Part shown: positions 18,669 through 27,329 of the stretch, piece after piece | Position numbering within the stretch: the stretch's first letter is position 1 | How the letters are laid out: every line of letters starts with the position of its first letter | Assembly (NCBI RefSeq): GCF_031326345.1 | Contig: NZ_CP133671.1 | Location: 186,001 to 250,000 of the forward strand | Direction: 5' to 3' | Length of the DNA: 64,000 nucleotides | Origin: Aureispira sp. CCB-E | GTDB lineage: Bacteria; Bacteroidota; Bacteroidia; Chitinophagales; Saprospiraceae | Position numbers and translations under genes: made by a program | The notes under the pieces: model-generated | The model's input: only the letters and a program-made list of their open reading frames with translations | Told to the model about the DNA's origin: nothing | The model's database searches: none

Positions 18669-19001
18669 GTGAATATTACGTTTAAAGATAAGAAGCTTGA
18701 ATCTTATGCTAATGATGATAAAAAAGGTAAAAAGAAATTAGGAGCAGTACGATTCAAAAAATTTAAACAGCGTATTGATGCGCTCCGAATGGTCAAAAAC
18801 TTAGAGGACATAAGGCATTTTCCTGGCAATTATCACGAACTAAAAGAAGATAGAAAAGGTCAATGGGCGTGTTCATTAGATGGAGCATTTCGCCTTATTT
18901 TTGAACCTCACGAAAACCCTATTCCTGAAAATGAGAATGGTCAATACCTTTGGATAGAAATTAAAGGTGTAGAAGTTTTAGAAATTGTCGACTATCATTA
19001 A
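18669..19001 (+). CDS. higB: HigB/RelE-like toxin
   Basis: This 110-residue basic protein of the plasmid-maintenance-killer (HigB/RelE) family is expected to act as a ribosome-dependent mRNA interferase. Evidence is the ordered pattern of the fold: an N-terminal strand, a lysine-rich helix with RFKKFKQRIDAL, FPGNYHELKEDRKGQWACSL and FRLIFEP, and a final strand EVLEIVDYH. The start is a GTG; no ATG lies at a suitable position. The antitoxin gene follows after 36 bases. The toxin-first order is typical of hig systems. Confidence 0.85.
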   Translation: MNITFKDKKLESYANDDKKGKKKLGAVRFKKFKQRIDALRMVKNLEDIRHFPGNYHELKEDRKGQWACSLDGAFRLIFEPHENPIPENENGQYLWIEIKGVEVLEIVDYH

Positions 19002-19037
19002 TACATACCCAACTCTATATAATAAATTTTCGATACG

Positions 19038-20129
19038 ATGAAGAATACATATAATCCCCAAACGGTAACACCTCCCAAAGATTTTCTAATAGAAGCCCTT
19101 GAAGAGCGCAATATGGGTTCTAAAGAGTTTGCTATTAGAACAGAAAAACCCGAAAAAACAATTTCGGCTATTCTAAATGGAAAAAGTAGTATTACCCCCG
19201 AAATGGCAATTCAATTTGAAAAAGTATTGAATATGCCTGCCTATTTTTGGTTAGAAGCTCAACGTGTCTATGATGAATGCGAAGCAAGAAACGCTTATCA
19301 AAGAATCATTGAAGGAAGTATAGATTGGGCAAAAGAGTTTCCTTATAGTAACATGGCAAAATTAGGATGGGTAGCCCCAACAAGAAAAGCCTCTGAAAAA
19401 GCTGCCGAACTATTAACATTCTTTGGTGTAGCCTCTCCTAAAGCTTGGAAAGATTGTTATTTTGATAAGAAGATTAAAGTATCTCTTAGAGCCTCTTTAG
19501 AGGAAGTTAAACACGCTCATGCTTTAACTGCATGGTTACGCCATGGCTTACTACAAGCACAAAAGATAGATGCACCTACTTATTCAAAAAGTACGTTCAA
19601 AAAACAACTAAAAGAAATACAAGAGTTAATGTATTTACAGCCTAGTGACTTTTTCCAACAATTGCAACAACTTTGTCTTAAAGCAGGGGTTATTGTCGTT
19701 TATAGTCCTTCTTTGCCTTCTGTTCCTATTCATGGTGCTACTCGATGGAATGGTAATACGCCTATTATCCAATTGACAGGACGATACAAACAAAATGATA
19801 TTTTTTGGTTTACATTTTTCCATGAAGCAGGGCATATTTTGGAACATGGGAAAAAGTATATCTCTTTAGAAAATATTAGTTATAAAGGAGAAGATGAAAA
19901 GCTAGAGCAAGAAGCTGATGAAATAGCCATTTCTTATACATTTAACAAACAACAAGAAAAGGAATTTTTAGCCCTTGATTCTTTAGAAGATGAAACCATC
20001 GAAGCTTTTGCTGAAAAACACAGGATACACCCTGCTGTTATTGTAGGTCGCTTACAACACAAGAAGATTATATCTTTCAAAGACAAACGAAAATTCTTTG
20101 TAGCTATTAATTTAGGGCAAGAATCCTAA
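19038..20129 (+). CDS. higA: HigA-like antitoxin fused to an ImmA/IrrE metallopeptidase domain
   Basis: This 363-residue protein has two parts. Residues ~10-85 are a HigA-type XRE helix-turn-helix (MGSKEFAIRTEKPEKTISAI, then ITPEMAIQFEKVLNMPAYFW), expected to bind its own promoter and neutralise the toxin. Residues ~190-363 are an ImmA/IrrE-like zinc peptidase with the HExxH motif in FFHEAGHILEHGKK (~262-272). A long antitoxin of this type could be a protease-regulated repressor. It lies 36 bases after the toxin and is followed by a strong terminator, so the two genes form a complete operon. Confidence 0.87.
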   Translation: MKNTYNPQTVTPPKDFLIEALEERNMGSKEFAIRTEKPEKTISAILNGKSSITPEMAIQFEKVLNMPAYFWLEAQRVYDECEARNAYQRIIEGSIDWAKEFPYSNMAKLGWVAPTRKASEKAAELLTFFGVASPKAWKDCYFDKKIKVSLRASLEEVKHAHALTAWLRHGLLQAQKIDAPTYSKSTFKKQLKEIQELMYLQPSDFFQQLQQLCLKAGVIVVYSPSLPSVPIHGATRWNGNTPIIQLTGRYKQNDIFWFTFFHEAGHILEHGKKYISLENISYKGEDEKLEQEADEIAISYTFNKQQEKEFLALDSLEDETIEAFAEKHRIHPAVIVGRLQHKKIISFKDKRKFFVAINLGQES

Positions 20130-20153
20130 ACAGACAATAAACTATTAAATAAA

Positions 20154-20188
20154 AATCCCCCTCTATCTTTTTGGGGGATTCTTTTTTT
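20154..20188 (+). terminator. Intrinsic terminator of the toxin-antitoxin operon
   Basis: AATCCCCC at 20154-20161 pairs with GGGGGATT at 20173-20180 over an 11-nt loop and is followed by a run of seven T. Confidence 0.9.
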
Positions 20189-20266
20189 ATAACTAGAAAT
20201 AACAGAGAAAAAGAATCATAATTTCCTATTATAAGCTAAATTCCTTAGTTATTTAGGTTTCATAAA

Positions 20267-20844
20267 ATGCCAAAGTATCATACTTTCCCAACCTTATACA
20301 ACGAAGTTTTACAATTAAGTACAACCAAACTTAAAGAATGGGAATATCTCAAACCCAATAGCTATAAAAGTGGAATACTTACATGGAGCAGTAATGGAAA
20401 ACAGATAGGGAGAATTTCTATTCTTATAGATACTTCTGAAAAGCAACCCTACATAGAGCTAGATTATAAATTTAGAGATAAACCCCGAAACTATAAGATA
20501 AAGTTAGTTTCAATGCCCTCTAACTTAGGAAAAGGTGTTCTTTGGTCTTCCTTTGTCCTGTTACTAAAAAGCGTTGTAGAAAGCTTTATTCTATTGATGG
20601 ATATTTTTTACACAGAGAAGCTTTTGAAGGTTGTATGTATGAATCACAAACTTATAGCAAGTATTATAGAAGCCTTGATAAAATATTTAAGAGTGATATG
20701 CTATATGAACAAATTTATAGTAAACATTTCAAGAAGTTTTATAAAGGAAAACCAACTAAACGCTATGCTAAGATTTTAAAGGAACTTGAAAAAGCTGAGA
20801 GGATTGATTATAAAGCTTTCGAGGCTGAACTATATAAGGTATAG
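20267..20844 (+). pseudogene. Frameshifted hypothetical gene
   Basis: Two overlapping frames together make one protein of about 190 residues. The first frame (from ATG 20267) reads well to KLVSMPSNLGKGVLW. From about 20545 the sense continues in the frame one base back: FLCPVTKKRCRKLYSIDGYF, then a YESQTYSKYYR segment and a basic C-terminus ending at 20844. A missing base within TGGTCTTCC (20543-20551) would explain it. The CP and C residues near CPVTKKRC recall a family I know only as hypothetical proteins. It may be a true pseudogene, a sequencing error or programmed frameshifting. Confidence 0.75.
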
Positions 20845-21003: not shown

Positions 21004-21867
21004 TTATGACACTAAATTAGCAAATTTAGTCCATAGTGTAGGTTGAAATGACTCTTTAAAAATTGTTATTTCAAATTGAGTTTCTTCTTGATTCATTTTA
21101 CCTAATGTTCGTCTATCGCTACTATTCAAACCAATATACTCAACAAGAAAGTCACACATAAATATTAAATATTTTGAACGAGATTTTATGGGCATAACTA
21201 TTCCTGTTGTGTAATCACTTTTGATATTAATATATGAAATAGCAAGAGGAATTTTTTTTAGCTCTTCCACATTTACTGTTTTACAGTCTAAAATAATCGT
21301 CCTTAGAGTTTCTTCAATTTCATTGTCTAATTTAAAACTGGAAACACAAGCAGATGTACGCCATAATTGTAATAAAAAGAAAAGTCTTATTCTTTTTATA
21401 TCATCCTCTTGATTAAAGAGCTCATATCCATCTATTATATTATCAGCAGAAGGATTTGGTGTAGCTGTATTAGGCATGAAACTTTCAGCACGAAACTTAT
21501 TCATGATAGAGGCAAAAGGGGATTCTATTTCATCTGCCATCATTTTTTCACACTGTCTACAGAATACATAATCAACAGCATGCTTATCTGTCTTTTTAGC
21601 TTCTTCAATTTCTTCATCTGTAGGGGAGCGGTTTAACGCTTCTTCTATGCTTTTCTGACTTGTTTTTTGCCCAAATTTATATTTTTTTGAATAAGTCTTA
21701 TCATCTAGGTCAAGAGTTATTTCATAAGAACTAGTTTTTGCTCTTATTTTACTCCCCTCTTCATTTAAGCATCTTCTGATAACAGAATCAGTGAGATAGT
21801 GAGTATTAGTATCATCGGCTGTATTAGTCAAACACAAAGCGCACTTTCTTTCAGAATCAAATTCCAT
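21004..21867 (-). CDS. Hypothetical protein with HNH-like CxxC...CxxC module
   Basis: This 287-residue soluble protein has CALC at residues ~9-12, a downstream THYLTDSVIRRCL segment, and CRQC at ~99-102. That is the pattern of a treble-clef/HNH-like zinc module (CxxC, a histidine region, CxxC), although a canonical HNH core is not evident. The charged middle (DEEIEEAKKTDKHAVDY) links the knuckles. The C-terminal ~170 residues are helical without recognisable motifs. It lies 67 bases downstream of the 141-residue gene on the same strand and is probably co-transcribed. Nuclease activity is speculation. Confidence 0.7.
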   Translation of the reverse strand: MEFDSERKCALCLTNTADDTNTHYLTDSVIRRCLNEEGSKIRAKTSSYEITLDLDDKTYSKKYKFGQKTSQKSIEEALNRSPTDEEIEEAKKTDKHAVDYVFCRQCEKMMADEIESPFASIMNKFRAESFMPNTATPNPSADNIIDGYELFNQEDDIKRIRLFFLLQLWRTSACVSSFKLDNEIEETLRTIILDCKTVNVEELKKIPLAISYINIKSDYTTGIVMPIKSRSKYLIFMCDFLVEYIGLNSSDRRTLGKMNQEETQFEITIFKESFQPTLWTKFANLVS

Positions 21868-21934
21868 AATGTTTATTTTAGGATGAGAGACAAATACTTT
21901 GAATCAAAGATGTCTTTTATTTTGAGATAGTGTA

Positions 21935-22360
21935 TTAAAATATAATTTTACTAAAAGGATCATCTCCTTTAATAATGAAGGCATGCTTTTCAGAATTATA
22001 CTCTAACTCTAATCCGTCAATATAAAAATCCCTTGATATAATTTCAGATGTATTATCTCTTGTTTTTGTTGCTTTTATTTTTAGCGTTCCTGTTTGGTTC
22101 ACTCTAGTAGATATTGTGATATTGGGCTCTGCGGCAACATTTGGATGACCTATGTCAAGATAAAATGAATTTATTTTTCCTTCTTGATCATTCCAGTGTT
22201 TTGTTGTTGTTGTTTGAAAATCAACCCGAGTCACTTGTATAGTGCAATCATTTCCATTGACTACTTTTTTTACTTTATTTGATGTTGTATAGTTGGAAAT
22301 GAATTCTTTTATTGCTTGGGATATAAGACGTAATGCTTCTTTAGATGATATATTGTTCAT
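21935..22360 (-). CDS. Hypothetical protein, first gene of a two-gene cassette
   Basis: This 141-residue protein has an N-terminal helix (EALRLISQAIKEFISNY) followed by a mainly beta region with threonine-rich strands (TIQVTRVDFQTTTTKHW, NITISTRVNQTGTLKIK). It has no signal peptide and no cysteine pairs. I do not recognise the family. It is followed after 67 bases by the CxxC protein, and the pair sits between a toxin-antitoxin operon and a broken ATPase-HEPN gene, so a host-defence context is possible. Confidence 0.65.
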   Translation of the reverse strand: MNNISSKEALRLISQAIKEFISNYTTSNKVKKVVNGNDCTIQVTRVDFQTTTTKHWNDQEGKINSFYLDIGHPNVAAEPNITISTRVNQTGTLKIKATKTRDNTSEIISRDFYIDGLELEYNSEKHAFIIKGDDPFSKIIF

Positions 22361-22703: not shown

Positions 22704-23306
22704 TTACTTTTTCTCCAAAATCCATTTATCAAGGAAGTCATTAACCTTCTCAATATAGTTAATTGCTTCTTGTTTAGTTTTTGTTGTTCCAGAATGTCCC
22801 GCAGAGTTTCTTACATTTCTCAAATAGTCAATTAAATCTATTTTTAAATTCATAGGAGAATTAAATTGGTTTTCTAACTCCACTACCAATTGTGAAAAAT
22901 GACTAGTGTTACAATGTTGTAATTCTGTTGAACCATACTTAAACTTTTCTAGAGAACCTTGCATAAGACCAAGCATCCATTTTTTTGAGGCGTCAATACT
23001 TAAGAATATCTCTTTTAATTCATTTTCTATGGTTCTTCCATACTGAATTATGACAGGCGAAAAATCACTCATTTCATCAATCGTATTCATTAAAAACTGT
23101 CCCGAAGACATATATTTAACACTAAGTGAAGATATTTTGGAAACATTAAATCTCGTATTTATAATTCTTTGATATACTTGAATATCCAATTTATTCGTAT
23201 AGGCGTCAATTTTTTGTTCTAACTCAGAAATTTTATTTTCAATCTCTTCGTTTTTCGTTTTTAACTCATAAAAATCATCTAAAAATCTATCTCTTTGAAT
23301 GTTAAG
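22704..23306 (-). pseudogene. 3' fragment of ATPase-HEPN gene: coiled coil and HEPN domain
   Basis: About 200 residues follow the insertion sequence. The first ~50 form a heptad-like coiled coil (KTKNEEIENKISELEQKI). The C-terminal ~110 are helical and carry RNVRNSAGH (~165-173), which contains the R-x4-H motif of HEPN ribonuclease domains. No proper start exists: the only one is a TTG inside the IS end. The frame joins exactly to the ATPase fragment through the shared codons CTT AAC ATT (Leu-Asn-Ile), which are the IS target duplication. It is therefore the severed C-terminus of the gene that begins at 26939. It might still be expressed from the IS. Confidence 0.82.
23298..23306. repeat. 9-bp target-site duplication, left copy
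   Basis: AATGTTAAG directly abuts the left IS end and is repeated exactly at 24996-25004. Removing one copy and the intervening DNA restores a continuous reading frame. Confidence 0.88.
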
Positions 23307-23359
23307 CAGCAATTCTAACGATGTAAGAAAATATATTAAATAATAATAATATCAAATAG

Positions 23360-24640
23360 CTATTCTAATTGAGGTCGAATATTGACCTTTCTAGCGATTA
23401 TTTGATAGATTAAGTTCATTGAAATAGTAGGAATAAAATCAAAGAGTACTCGAACTTTCTGCCTTAAATCACGCAATGTTTTTGCTTCTTTTAAGGCTTG
23501 TTCAAAACTTTCATCAACAGCCCTTGTAATCTGGTCAACAAAAAATGCTAATAGCATAATCAAAGCAAATACTGTTGACAAGTAGAATTTTCCATGACCA
23601 TAATTATGTTCCAAATTGTAGTCTTGATTCTTCAAGGTGTTAAATGTCTCATTTTCAATTTTCCAACGTGCTCTTCCAGCTGTGGCAATAGATGAAACAT
23701 TTGATTTAGTCAAAGTTAGGTTGGTAATCCACTTATTGGAATAAACCACTTTATCTTTTTCTAAATCATATTCTTCGTATTCTAAATAGTTTACGATAAT
23801 ATCTTGGTTTGCGCCATTTAGAATGAGGTTAGATGCCCACCTGTATCGACACAGAGTCTTTTCATTTTTCTGGTATTGACACTGATGCAAACTATCCTTT
23901 TTTCTAAGTTGCTTAACTTGTTCCAAAACATATCCTTCCTTGATTACTATGATGTAATCCATTTGGATATCTTGTGCTTGAAGTGCTTTAATAGTTGGAC
24001 CATCAGCATATAAAGCATCTAAAAGAATTAAGATCTTTTCTTTTGGCAGTATGCTGCGTAAATGTGGAAATAATCGTTTACATGCCTTTCGTTCACAATC
24101 ATTCTTTTTTGAACCATCCTGCCGCGTTATTGCTTCTCCAAAAACAGGAAAAACGGTCTTGAAATTAGGATGAACTACACTCGCTGCTAACAATTGGTGA
24201 TGATGTTCTATTGTACCATTTTTTCTTTTCTTTGTTAAACATTGAGAACAACCAATCTTATTGGAAGAAAATGTACCTGTGGCATCAACACTTACTAGCA
24301 AATGTTGGTCTAAGTATCTTCTACTTTCGAGTATTTTGAGCCTTTCCAAATGTTCAAAGATTGTTTTAAAAGTAGGTTGAAAAACAGATGGTTGGACAGC
24401 ATCTAAAATTTTTCGCATCCCATTATCTGTTGGAAGCTTACTAATTTTAAAGACTTGTTCTAAATTGTCCTTACGATGAATGGCATTATCTATAAAACTC
24501 AATAATGATGGATCTTTTAGACCAAACATAGCAAATGCTCCCATTAAACAATCATGTAGCAAATATTCTGTATGCCCTTTTCGATCGTCTGGAACTTGGT
24601 GAAACTCTTTGGATACTATTTCTACTAATTTGTCGTACAT
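23360..24640 (-). CDS. DDE transposase
   Basis: This 426-residue transposase of the IS4-like RNase H superfamily catalyses excision and insertion of its IS. The catalytic triad candidates are D in SVDATGTFSS (~120), D in LLDALYADG (~208) and E in RWKIENETFNTLKN (~329). CQYQ and the C-terminal hydrophobic TVFALIMLLAFF resemble the family tail. The gene looks intact, so the element may be active. A small inverted repeat (TTTACT/AGTAAA) lies just before the ATG. Confidence 0.9.
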   Translation of the reverse strand: MYDKLVEIVSKEFHQVPDDRKGHTEYLLHDCLMGAFAMFGLKDPSLLSFIDNAIHRKDNLEQVFKISKLPTDNGMRKILDAVQPSVFQPTFKTIFEHLERLKILESRRYLDQHLLVSVDATGTFSSNKIGCSQCLTKKRKNGTIEHHHQLLAASVVHPNFKTVFPVFGEAITRQDGSKKNDCERKACKRLFPHLRSILPKEKILILLDALYADGPTIKALQAQDIQMDYIIVIKEGYVLEQVKQLRKKDSLHQCQYQKNEKTLCRYRWASNLILNGANQDIIVNYLEYEEYDLEKDKVVYSNKWITNLTLTKSNVSSIATAGRARWKIENETFNTLKNQDYNLEHNYGHGKFYLSTVFALIMLLAFFVDQITRAVDESFEQALKEAKTLRDLRQKVRVLFDFIPTISMNLIYQIIARKVNIRPQLE

Positions 24641-24728
24641 CGTTTACTTTTTAGTAAATGTACGTTCCTTTTTCAATGAACTTAAATCTTATTTTATCAT
24701 ATAATTCTGTTTATCGTTAGAATTGCTG

Positions 24729-24995
24729 AATGTTAGCGAAACTAACGACATTTGAAATTATATTTATTTAATTCATAAATCAGTGCCTATCGATACTTGC
24801 GAAGTTTCAAAAGGAAACTATAAAATTTAACATCCCAAAATAATGTCTAAAAAATGCTCTAAAAGCCCTTGTTTTAGGGATTTTTCAGGTCTTTTTTTTG
24901 CGATTTTAGCACTCTATTTTGACTCGTATGTCCTATAAATGCAGACTTATGGTAAAATTAAATATAATTCCGTTTATCGTTAGAACCGCTGGCTG
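24729..24995. repeat. Extra IS-end segment between IS core and right target repeat
   Basis: Starting with AATGTTAGC, this segment has AGCGAAACTAACGAC at 24735-24749 and ATCGTTAGAACCGCTG at 24976-24991, which pair as degenerate inverted repeats (11 of 15) of the same type as the IS ends. It encodes nothing. It could be a non-autonomous derivative of the IS inserted in tandem. Confidence 0.55.
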
Positions 24996-25967
24996 AATGT
25001 TAAGTAAACTTAATTTTAAATTAGTCTGTTCATCAAAAAAACCTTTCCCAAAATACTTTTCATAATCAATACTGCCATCTTCTCCTATTTGAACATGACT
25101 GATGTATTTATCTTTCGTCCCTTCCATAACATCATTTGGATGATTAAAATAATACATCTTTACATCATTTGGAGAAACTATTTTTTTACCTATATATTCT
25201 TGAAATTTATAAATTAGATACTCACTATGAGTTTCTATAAGGAACTGAATATTAAACCTAGAGGCAGCATCAATAAATAACTCTGCCATTTTTGCCTGTA
25301 AAGATGGATGTAGATTGGCTTCAGGTTCTTCTATTAACAAAGTTGAAGGGCTAAAGTATATTGTTTCTCTTTCATAATATCCTTCTTGATGATTAAAATT
25401 ATACTCATATATTCTTTCATGCTTTTGAGCAATAGTAGCTATTTTCATTATGATTGGAAGTAATTGGGATACTCCATATCCCAAATCTACTAGAGGGGTT
25501 TTTGTTCCATCAAAATTAACTAGGAAAATTTTAGTCAAACCAATTGTTTCATCTCTAAAAACTGAAAGTTCTTTTCCTATTTTGAAGCCTTTTTGTTGAT
25601 TTTTTCCACTTTCATTAACCTCTCCTTTCCCAATCCAAAAGTTTATAAAATTTTGAATTGGTAGGTGATTCTCTAAATATATAGAAGAAAAATCTCTTAC
25701 GATTTGAATATCTTCACTATTCTGTTCGTCAATAAACCATTCTCTATTTCTACCTCTTGTAGTTGGTAGAAAATAAACCTTTTTTAAACTATCTATTTTT
25801 TTCTGAACAGCACCTAAAAAATCCCTCTCTATTGCTTTTAATAGATTTGTAAAAAGTGTACTGTTAGGTGTAGTTTGAAACATTGAGGATTTAAACGCAT
25901 CACGAAAATTCTGTTCTTCGTTAGTTTCTTCTTTTTTTTGTTCAGCTCTTATAATATCTTGTTCCAT
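24996..25967 (-). pseudogene. Middle fragment of ATPase-HEPN gene: ATPase C-terminal half
   Basis: This fragment carries the second half of an OLD/DUF3696-like ATPase: signature-like DLGYGVSQLLP, Walker B LLIEEPEANLHP (~215-228 of the fragment), an H-loop in FLIETHSEYLI, and the family end FGKGFFDEQTNLKLSLLNIQ. The ORF runs through the target duplication into the IS and stops at 24933, adding about 20 foreign residues. Walker A is absent because it lies in the upstream ORF. The intervening 17 codons are in the same frame and interrupted by a single TAA, so an ATG at 25967 is probably not the natural start. Confidence 0.83.
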
Positions 25968-26018
25968 TCCATTAAACAGATTAGAAAAGCTATGTTTGAA
26001 ACATTCTAAAAGTTTGTA

Positions 26019-26939
26019 TTAGCTATTCTCCTTTCCTTTAATAAGTTCAGTAGTAATTTTTTGTTCTATTTCTAATAGTTTTGACCTTTCTTCTTCTGAT
26101 AATTCTGAATAATCAGAAAATAAACTTTTTCCTTTGGTGAGCTTTTTAGTAAGTTTTTCGTAGCCATCTTTTTTCTTTTTGGGAAAAGGAAAGTCAAAAA
26201 AGATGCCCCCATACTTTTCAATTCTACTAAACAAGTCAATAGCAAAATAGTCTGCGGTGTTTTCATTAGGTTCAATTCCTTCCTCTATCTCTACAAAAGG
26301 TGTTTCGATGATGAGTTGAAGAATTTTTTTTAAATCAAGGCTTGTTTCCATTTCCCATTCAGGAGCATCATCATAATACTCTCTATAACCTATTATATTA
26401 GACCAATGTAAATATGCTCCATTCCTTACAATCGCAATATTTTTAATCTCATGTGAAACTACTACTTCTTTTTTATCTCCTTTCTTAGGTAGAAAACGGT
26501 TTAATCCATATCTCACTTCTAAAGTTGCACTTATTTCTCGGCGATCTCCAAATTGCATTGGAAATGCAAAGACTAAGTCTTCATCCTCTTCAAAAATAGG
26601 TCGTTCACAGGAAGTAGGGTCATTCTTTTTGTGAAATTCCGAAAGTCTCGAGTACATATGTTGTCTTTGGGGCATTTTTGAGTTTTTAAAAGCCATCATT
26701 GTAACTCGATTAAAGATGCGTTCAAGATTTCCAAGCTCATGTTTCATTGTCTTAAAATCTAAGGTTTCTGAAACAATTCCATCTTTATAATTATGGATCA
26801 AGAACTGTATTGCTTTGAATACAGAGCTTTTTCCTGTATTATTTGTACCTGTGATTAATGTAATTGGTGCAAATTCAAGATTTTCTTTCTTTTTAAAAGT
26901 CCTAAAATTTTGTAGTCCTATTCCTTCTAAATTTGGCAT
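26019..26939 (-). pseudogene. 5' fragment of ATPase-HEPN gene: Walker A half
   Basis: This is the N-terminal 306 residues of an ATPase that opens like OLD/AAA_15 proteins (LQNFRTFKK) with Walker A GTNNTGKS at residues 31-38. It ends in a charged coiled region (EIEQKITTELIKGKENS) at TAA 26019-26021. Translation past that TAA continues in frame (YKLLECFKHSFSNLF) into the next ORF, so one nonsense codon splits the gene. Alternatively the two halves could be expressed as separate subunits. The full gene would be about 845 residues. Confidence 0.8.
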
Positions 26940-27242: not shown

Positions 27243-27256
27243 TTATATATTGTTAG

Positions 27257-27329
27257 TCGGGATGACTGGACTTGAACCAGCGACCTCACGCCCCCCAGAC
27301 GCGTACTCTACCAACTGAGCTACATCCCG
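27257..27329 (-). tRNA. tRNA-Pro (anticodon GGG)
   Basis: The minus strand folds into a 73-nt cloverleaf: acceptor CGGGATG with CATCCCG, the D-arm GCTCAGTTGGTAGAG, an anticodon stem CGCGT/GCGTG around loop CTGGGGG, and the T-loop TTCAAGT. The discriminator is A, and the CCA is not encoded. The anticodon GGG gives proline. Confidence 0.95.

What the first reader, a model, noticed from the sequence alone, without database searches (positions are those of the whole stretch)
22704..26939. A broken ATPase-coiled coil-HEPN gene can be reconstructed across an IS
Seen directly: the 24933-25967 ORF and the 22704-23312 ORF share codons CTT AAC ATT at the AATGTTAAG repeat. Deleting 23298-24995 makes one frame, reading through LKLSLLNIQRDRFLDDF. 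The upstream Walker A ORF is in the same frame. The rebuilt protein (about 845 residues) has Walker A, signature, Walker B and H-loop of an OLD/DUF3696-like ATPase, then a coiled coil and an R-x4-H HEPN domain. ATPase-gated HEPN RNases are known logic in abortive infection. I do not recall a described system with exactly this fusion.
Basis: partly seen in the sequence, partly recalled or inferred. Interest (0 to 1): 0.82.

Follow-up and report, generated by a model that had tools for sequence, protein, structure and literature searches.

The report
Broken hybrid ATPase–RNase defence gene
A bacterial gene that joins an energy-using sensor to a probable RNA-cutting domain, a layout known from defence against viruses, is broken here by a stop and two nested mobile elements, while whole relatives in other bacteria show that this copy mixes parts of two sister families.

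Summary
Three collinear pieces on the minus strand (26939-26022, 25967-25005, 23297-22707) share one frame. The gap is two nested inserts: a 1422-bp IS4-like element with a 9-bp target duplication, and a 258-bp MITE at its edge with its own 9-bp duplication. A TAA stop at 26019-26021 also breaks the frame. Whole single-chain homologues exist in other Bacteroidota: AAA_15/AAA_21/DUF3696-type ATPase, coiled coil, C-terminal HEPN with invariant R-N-x3-H. They form two types, L (about 960 aa) and S (about 770 aa). The window gene is a chimera: its ATPase pieces belong to L (57-79% identity), its HEPN piece to S (49-68%); trees agree with full support. None of 22 other chains is such a hybrid. A confident AlphaFold model of the HEPN piece aligns best with RnlA and other HEPN chains, though Foldseek's E-values are not significant. 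Some homologues sit beside CBASS, Gabija or Hachiman genes. The likely function is ATPase-gated RNA cleavage in abortive infection, the logic of PrrC/RloC. ABC-ATPase-HEPN fusions have been in print since 2013; this is a further subfamily, and this copy is dead.

The parts
26022..26939 (-). N-terminal ATPase piece (306 aa); Walker A GTNNTGKS at 26826-26849
   Evidence: AAA_15 2e-10, AAA_23 4e-10; 57-72% to nine L-type homologues
26019..26021 (-). in-frame TAA stop; whole homologues read on at this place
25968..26018 (-). 17 codons between the stop and the next ATG, resembling the homologues' continuous reading (by eye)
25005..25967 (-). C-terminal ATPase piece: signature region LVDLGYGVSQL 25461-25493, Walker B STLLIEEPE 25320-25346, H-loop IETHSEY 25218-25238, DUF3696 25014-25175 (motif names recalled)
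   Evidence: AAA_15 8e-19, DUF3696 8e-8; NsnB 2.6e-29
24996..25004 (.). left copy of the IS 9-bp target duplication (AATGTTAAG on +)
24992..24995 (-). first four bases (CAGC) of the IS, cut off from its body by the MITE
24734..24991 (-). 258-bp MITE; target duplication ACATTCAGC at 24992-25000 and 24725-24733
   Evidence: 5 further near-full copies, each with a 9-bp duplication
23307..24728 (-). IS4-like insertion sequence, 1422 bp; one of 10 copies in this genome
23360..24640 (-). its DDE transposase (426 aa)
   Evidence: DDE_Tnp_1 1.6e-7; IS4_1 3e-7, under its cut-off
23298..23306 (.). right copy of the IS 9-bp target duplication
22707..23297 (-). coiled coil (about 23184-23297, judged by eye) and HEPN piece (197 aa); R-N-S-A-G-H at 22794-22811; S type

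Best explanation
This is the remains of a single-gene defence system: an OLD/AriA-like ABC ATPase that senses infection and restrains a C-terminal HEPN ribonuclease joined to it through a coiled coil. On a phage cue the ATPase changes state (hydrolysis or partner binding), the paired HEPN domains become active and cut host or phage RNA, and the cell stops growing or dies. Shown by sequence or prediction: the domain order, whole homologues, the invariant motif, the predicted fold, and the breaks. Inferred: dimerisation, RNA as substrate, the trigger, and abortive infection. The copy here arose as a hybrid (ATPase of L type, coiled coil and HEPN of S type), probably by recombination between neighbouring or incoming paralogues near the conserved FFDEQxNLKLSLLNIQRD stretch. 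It was then lost through a stop codon, an IS and a MITE; the IS preceded the MITE, while the place of the stop in that order is unknown.
Confidence: 0.75

Rival explanations
1. The hybrid was never one gene: an L-type and an S-type gene each took an IS, or an IS caused a deletion, and the two pieces are only neighbours through the IS.
For: G095 carries L and S in tandem on one strand, so a deletion between such genes would give this order; the IS lies within a few codons of the swap point.
Against: The outer flanks carry an exact 9-bp duplication as in 7 of 9 other copies, and the frame is kept. A deletion through the IS would not leave a matching duplication unless two copies had landed at the same codon of both genes; by eye the other target sites share no clear motif with this one. 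The flanking codons are conserved between L and S, so homology could help such a match.
Confidence: 0.1
2. The HEPN-like tail is not an RNase but a non-catalytic RNA-binding or dimerisation module, and the ATPase acts in DNA transactions (OLD/RecF-like).
For: Database support for HEPN is under the cut-offs; some HEPN domains are non-catalytic (PMC3710099, passages).
Against: The R-N-x3-H motif is invariant over L and S types whose tails are only 26-45% alike, as expected of an active site; the best-aligned fold is an RNase, RnlA.
Confidence: 0.15
3. The two ATPase ORFs are a working split protein or use stop readthrough, and the gene still works without its HEPN tail.
For: Both ORFs are long and open, and an ATG follows the 17 codons after the stop.
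Against: The homologues examined are one chain; the split lies between Walker A and Walker B; the IS and MITE cut off the HEPN tail.
Confidence: 0.04
4. The stop codon is a sequencing error, and only the mobile elements broke the gene.
For: One base decides a stop; no reads could be examined.
Against: The genome is held as 2 contigs at 99.93% completeness, and a gene already inactive collects stops.
Confidence: 0.1

Closest known systems
PrrC / RloC anticodon nucleases (ABC-ATPase with C-terminal HEPN)
   Same: N-terminal ABC-type ATPase, C-terminal HEPN with R-x4-6-H, one chain, defence context (PMC3710099, passages).
   Different: ATPase is AAA_15/AAA_21 (DUF3696 in the window, P0001, L037), not AAA_13; short coiled coil without a CxxC hook; no hsd gene among the four window neighbours given to Pfam.
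APECO1_4465 and ERFG_01251 ABC-HEPN families
   Same: Further fusions of ABC-ATPase with C-terminal HEPN named in 2013 (PMC3710099, passages).
   Different: Not compared by sequence here; ERFG_01251 has an added HEPN/TOPRIM-NTD1 domain that I did not look for.
Menshen NsnB
   Same: Best PADLOC match of the ATPase (P0001 1.1e-40; window C piece 2.6e-29).
   Different: Menshen has a DUF262 partner (PMC10952713, passages); none among the four window neighbours given to Pfam. The HEPN tail is extra. The Menshen domain survey PMC12065111 could not be read.
PARIS AriA/AriB, Gabija GajA, OLD nucleases
   Same: Related ATPase (AriA and GajA profiles match; OLD structure 6p74 at 3e-9); ATPase gating a nuclease.
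   Different: Those use a Toprim nuclease; no Toprim family listed for the window pieces or P0001/P0002.
RnlA (RNase LS)
   Different: RnlA has other N-terminal domains and an RnlB antitoxin; no ATPase (partly recalled).

Membership tests
HEPN superfamily | conserved R-x4-6-H with a polar residue after R | tested here: met
   R, N, H invariant in 14 of 14 rows; motif in the 9 further loci parsed, of 10 tried
HEPN superfamily | HEPN helical fold | tested here: met
HEPN superfamily | curated HEPN profile above its cut-off | tested here: not met
   RiboL-PSP 17.7 bits against 28.4; DUF4145 16.4 against 23.1; Swt1 17.7 against 27.5
OLD/AAA_15-type ABC ATPase | Walker A, Walker B, H-loop with AAA_15 above cut-off | tested here: met
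   window pieces 41.2 and 69 bits against 32.1; P0001 83.8, P0002 79.6
PrrC/RloC | AAA_13 (PF13166) ATPase (link to these families recalled) | tested here: not met
   listed only for P0002, 16 bits against 36; not listed for the window pieces or five further chains
PrrC/RloC | zinc-hook CxxC in the coiled coil (RloC; recalled) | tested here: not met
   no cysteine in the first 38 residues of the window HEPN piece
PrrC/RloC | tRNA anticodon cleavage | not testable with these tools
   needs biochemistry
Menshen | DUF262 partner gene | tested here: not met
   no DUF262 among the four window neighbours given to Pfam, all on one side of the gene (18669-19001, 19038-20129, 21004-21867, 21935-22360)
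PARIS / Gabija / OLD | Toprim nuclease domain or partner | tested here: not met
   no Toprim family listed for window pieces and four neighbours or P0001/P0002
APECO1_4465 / ERFG_01251 ABC-HEPN | sequence kinship to the prototypes | not tested
   prototypes not fetched

The most novel reading that the evidence does not exclude
A Bacteroidota family of single-gene ABC-ATPase-HEPN defence proteins, separate from PrrC/RloC, is built on a sensor/effector joint at which whole effector tails are exchanged: two lineages (L, S) keep their own tails, the window gene shows a swap between them, a related tail appears on a methyltransferase-specificity protein, and ATPase relatives without the tail sit beside a separate gene of about 340 codons instead.
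Probability: 0.6. Interest if true: 0.62.

Novelty: new variant of a known kind. Interest (0 to 1): 0.5.

Why it matters
It adds a distinct, testable subfamily to the ATPase-gated HEPN RNases, with whole copies in cultured species, some beside CBASS, Gabija or Hachiman genes. It also gives a natural domain swap that marks where sensor ends and effector begins. The window copy records a decayed defence gene with two ordered mobile insertions.

Tried and rejected
HEPN piece against plasmid records: no match. P0001 against phage records: none; against plasmids: 4 records, each covering 21% of the query or less. PDB by sequence: no hit for the HEPN piece or its profile; the ATPase C piece has one marginal hit and the full-length profile hits OLD and PtuA. 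PHROGs: for the HEPN piece only sub-0.01 matches to families of no known use here; the ATPase matches families of unknown function. A second viral-contig scan with the S-type HEPN alignment found only the L088 contig again. tRNA-Pro 3' end as an island att site: no second copy in the window with up to 3 mismatches. Rejected: a single composite element of 1689 bp, because IS and MITE each occur alone elsewhere with their own duplications. Not examined for architecture: genome loci L057-L087 and viral loci L089-L105 (the script stopped at L057). In one search, 9 of 10 loci parsed (L129 did not); L126 and L127 are 100% identical to L042 over the parsed part. Genome searches score only a capped number of candidates per genome, so their counts are lower bounds. 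Print: searches for HEPN with DUF3696 (0 papers), HEPN with ATPase terms and Menshen terms listed no paper that I recognised from its listing as this fusion; PMC7544218 and PMC12065111, the likeliest places, are not held. Seen as passages only: PMC3710099, PMC13092281, PMC12409363, PMC12839542, PMC10952713, PMC12704722.
Full report
Observation. The interval 23298-24995 is a multiple of three and the two upstream ORFs share one frame. I kept the pieces apart throughout.

The insert. The transposase (23360-24640) is DDE_Tnp_1/IS4-like and has 10 copies in this 7.39-Mb genome. Comparing the copies gives an IS body of 1422 bp, 23307-24728 here; 7 of the 9 other copies have a perfect 9-bp target duplication and 2 do not. 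The rest of the gap is a separate 258-bp MITE, 24734-24991. Five further near-full copies exist in the genome, and 5 of 5 have 258 bp and a perfect 9-bp duplication. Here the MITE duplicated ACATTCAGC, which spans the end of the gene flank and the first four bases of the IS, so the IS came first. That the duplication is exact argues that the flanks were contiguous before the IS landed.

The stop. The first piece ends at TAA 26019-26021. The next 17 codons read YKLLECFKHSFSNLFNG, which by eye resembles homologue P0001 after residue 304 (KILNCFHDNFSRTYYG), so the stop lies inside a formerly continuous frame. This is a second lesion, and its age relative to the IS is unknown.

Whole homologues. 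The HEPN piece matched 4 of 395 genomes of the phylum. One is this genome. G095 has two whole genes, one matching nearly the full piece at 49%. G174 has a weak match with stops, and G082 a weak match to a 566-aa protein without an ATPase family. An alignment of the two G095 proteins with the window ATPase C piece gave 54 related loci in the collection of 84,980 species genomes. Of the 23 loci whose frames I printed (L034-L056), 10 carry the fused tail and 13 do not. In one search the H-loop pattern failed for L038, L055 and L056: the L038 tail is, and the frames of L055 and L056 end within about 20 codons of the ATPase match. L057-L087 were not examined. One of 18 viral-contig loci (L088) was examined and is a whole fusion. 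In one family, 10 of 306 genomes held 12 copies, all in open frames of 776-975 codons without stops. The family is patchy elsewhere: P0001 matched 3 of 395 genomes of the class at E 1e-30 (this genome, G095, and G449), the tail profile 3 of 395 of G095's order (G095, G1120, and the methyltransferase protein of G130), and the window ATPase C piece 2 of 61 of the window's family (this genome and a stand-alone ATPase in G731). Among the ATPase relatives without the tail, 10 of 10 with sequence downstream (L045-L054) have a separate gene of 316-367 codons within 8 bases of the ATPase end or overlapping it. Three of the seven such partner genes scanned (L047, L049, L121) weakly match BrxL. I scanned two of these ATPases (L045, L052); both match NsnB best.

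Two types and a chimera. The whole proteins fall into L (about 960 aa) and S (about 770 aa), names of mine. Window ATPase N piece: 57-72% to nine L chains over 303-306 residues; to four S chains only 75-81 residues at 35-40%. Window ATPase C piece: 69-79% to L, 35-44% to S. Window HEPN piece: 49-68% to the four S chains over nearly its whole length; 26-45% to L, mostly partial. Trees agree: the ATPase C piece lies in the L clade (100/99) and the HEPN piece in the S clade (100/100) (that tree flagged long branches among the outgroup ATPases, not among L or S). None of 22 other chains is mixed: 13, one (L119), eight more. L129 was not parsed, and two of the 22 equal L042 over the parsed part. 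The swap point lies near the conserved FFDEQxNLKLSLLNIQRD stretch. G095 holds an L gene upstream of an S gene on the same strand, an arrangement from which a deletion would give this order; the two share 44 of 72 bases at the joint and no exact stretch over 13 bases, so homologous recombination there is possible but not shown.

Context. CBASS genes (effector, cyclase, E1-E2, JAB) lie next to the G095 pair. CBASS cyclase and E1-E2 with capP lie next to L036, Hachiman HamB and a methyltransferase next to L037, and Gabija GajA/GajB next to L042. L035 has an LA2681-type HEPN and an HNH gene. I chose which neighbours to scan, and there was no control set of loci. Of 8 fusion loci in which some neighbour was given to PADLOC, 4 gave strong hits (L026, L036, L037, L042), L119 only a weak caspase hit, and L035, L040 and L043 none. 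In the window, an HTH/M78 gene (19038-20129) matches PADLOC PD-Lambda-2_B at 6e-38 and follows a HigB-like gene. A related tail is found at the C-terminus of an N6-methylase/specificity protein in G130 (E 8e-12 in a search of 3370 ORFs; families).

Mechanism. Most likely, an ATPase sensor restrains a tethered HEPN RNase and releases it on infection. For PrrC and RloC, PMC3710099 reports regulation of the HEPN nuclease by the N-terminal ABC ATPase (passages); for PARIS, PMC12409363 describes AriA holding the nuclease inactive until a phage trigger binds (passages). Substrate, trigger and outcome are inferred here.

Known or new. ABC-ATPase fusions to C-terminal HEPN are a described class (PrrC, RloC, APECO1_4465, ERFG_01251; PMC3710099, passages). 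This family differs in its ATPase (AAA_15/AAA_21, DUF3696 in some, not AAA_13). Searches of the held library listed no paper that I recognised as describing it, but two key papers are not held. I therefore rate it a new variant of a known kind, with the natural effector swap as its most interesting feature.

Noticed in passing
window 24734-24991; own genome, six near-full copies: A 258-bp MITE family with 9-bp target duplications whose ends resemble those of the resident IS4-like element, which may mobilise it.
   Followed up: yes
L003 (own genome, second contig): A copy of the same IS is itself interrupted: its outer ends span 2719 bp, still flanked by a 9-bp duplication.
   Followed up: partly
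window 18669-20844: HigB-like toxin gene, then an HTH/M78 gene close to PADLOC PD-Lambda-2_B, then two overlapping ORFs in different frames (20267-20779, 20542-20844) that may be one frameshifted gene.
   Followed up: partly
L120 4891-7182: N6-methylase plus type I specificity domain with a related coiled coil-HEPN tail at its C-terminus: the tail used on a restriction-like protein.
   Followed up: partly
L026 11705-12073 and L119 10279-10647: A similar 122-codon gene (by eye) directly upstream of the S-type gene in two genomes; no family match above cut-off; possible partner.
   Followed up: partly
L119 3571-5427: Caspase-domain protein of 618 codons with an RNKVAH motif, three genes from an S-type gene; not matched by the HEPN profiles.
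   Followed up: partly
L045-L054: ATPase relatives without the HEPN tail are each followed at once by a gene of 316-367 codons; three of seven such partners scanned (L047, L049, L121) weakly match BrxL: a possible two-gene sister system.
   Followed up: partly
window 27256-27329: tRNA-Pro just upstream of the broken gene; no second copy of its 3' end in the window.
   Followed up: partly
window 21004-22360: Two genes without family matches above cut-off (287 and 141 codons) between the broken gene and the toxin-antitoxin-like pair; the first has a Cys-x2-Cys near its start.
   Followed up: no
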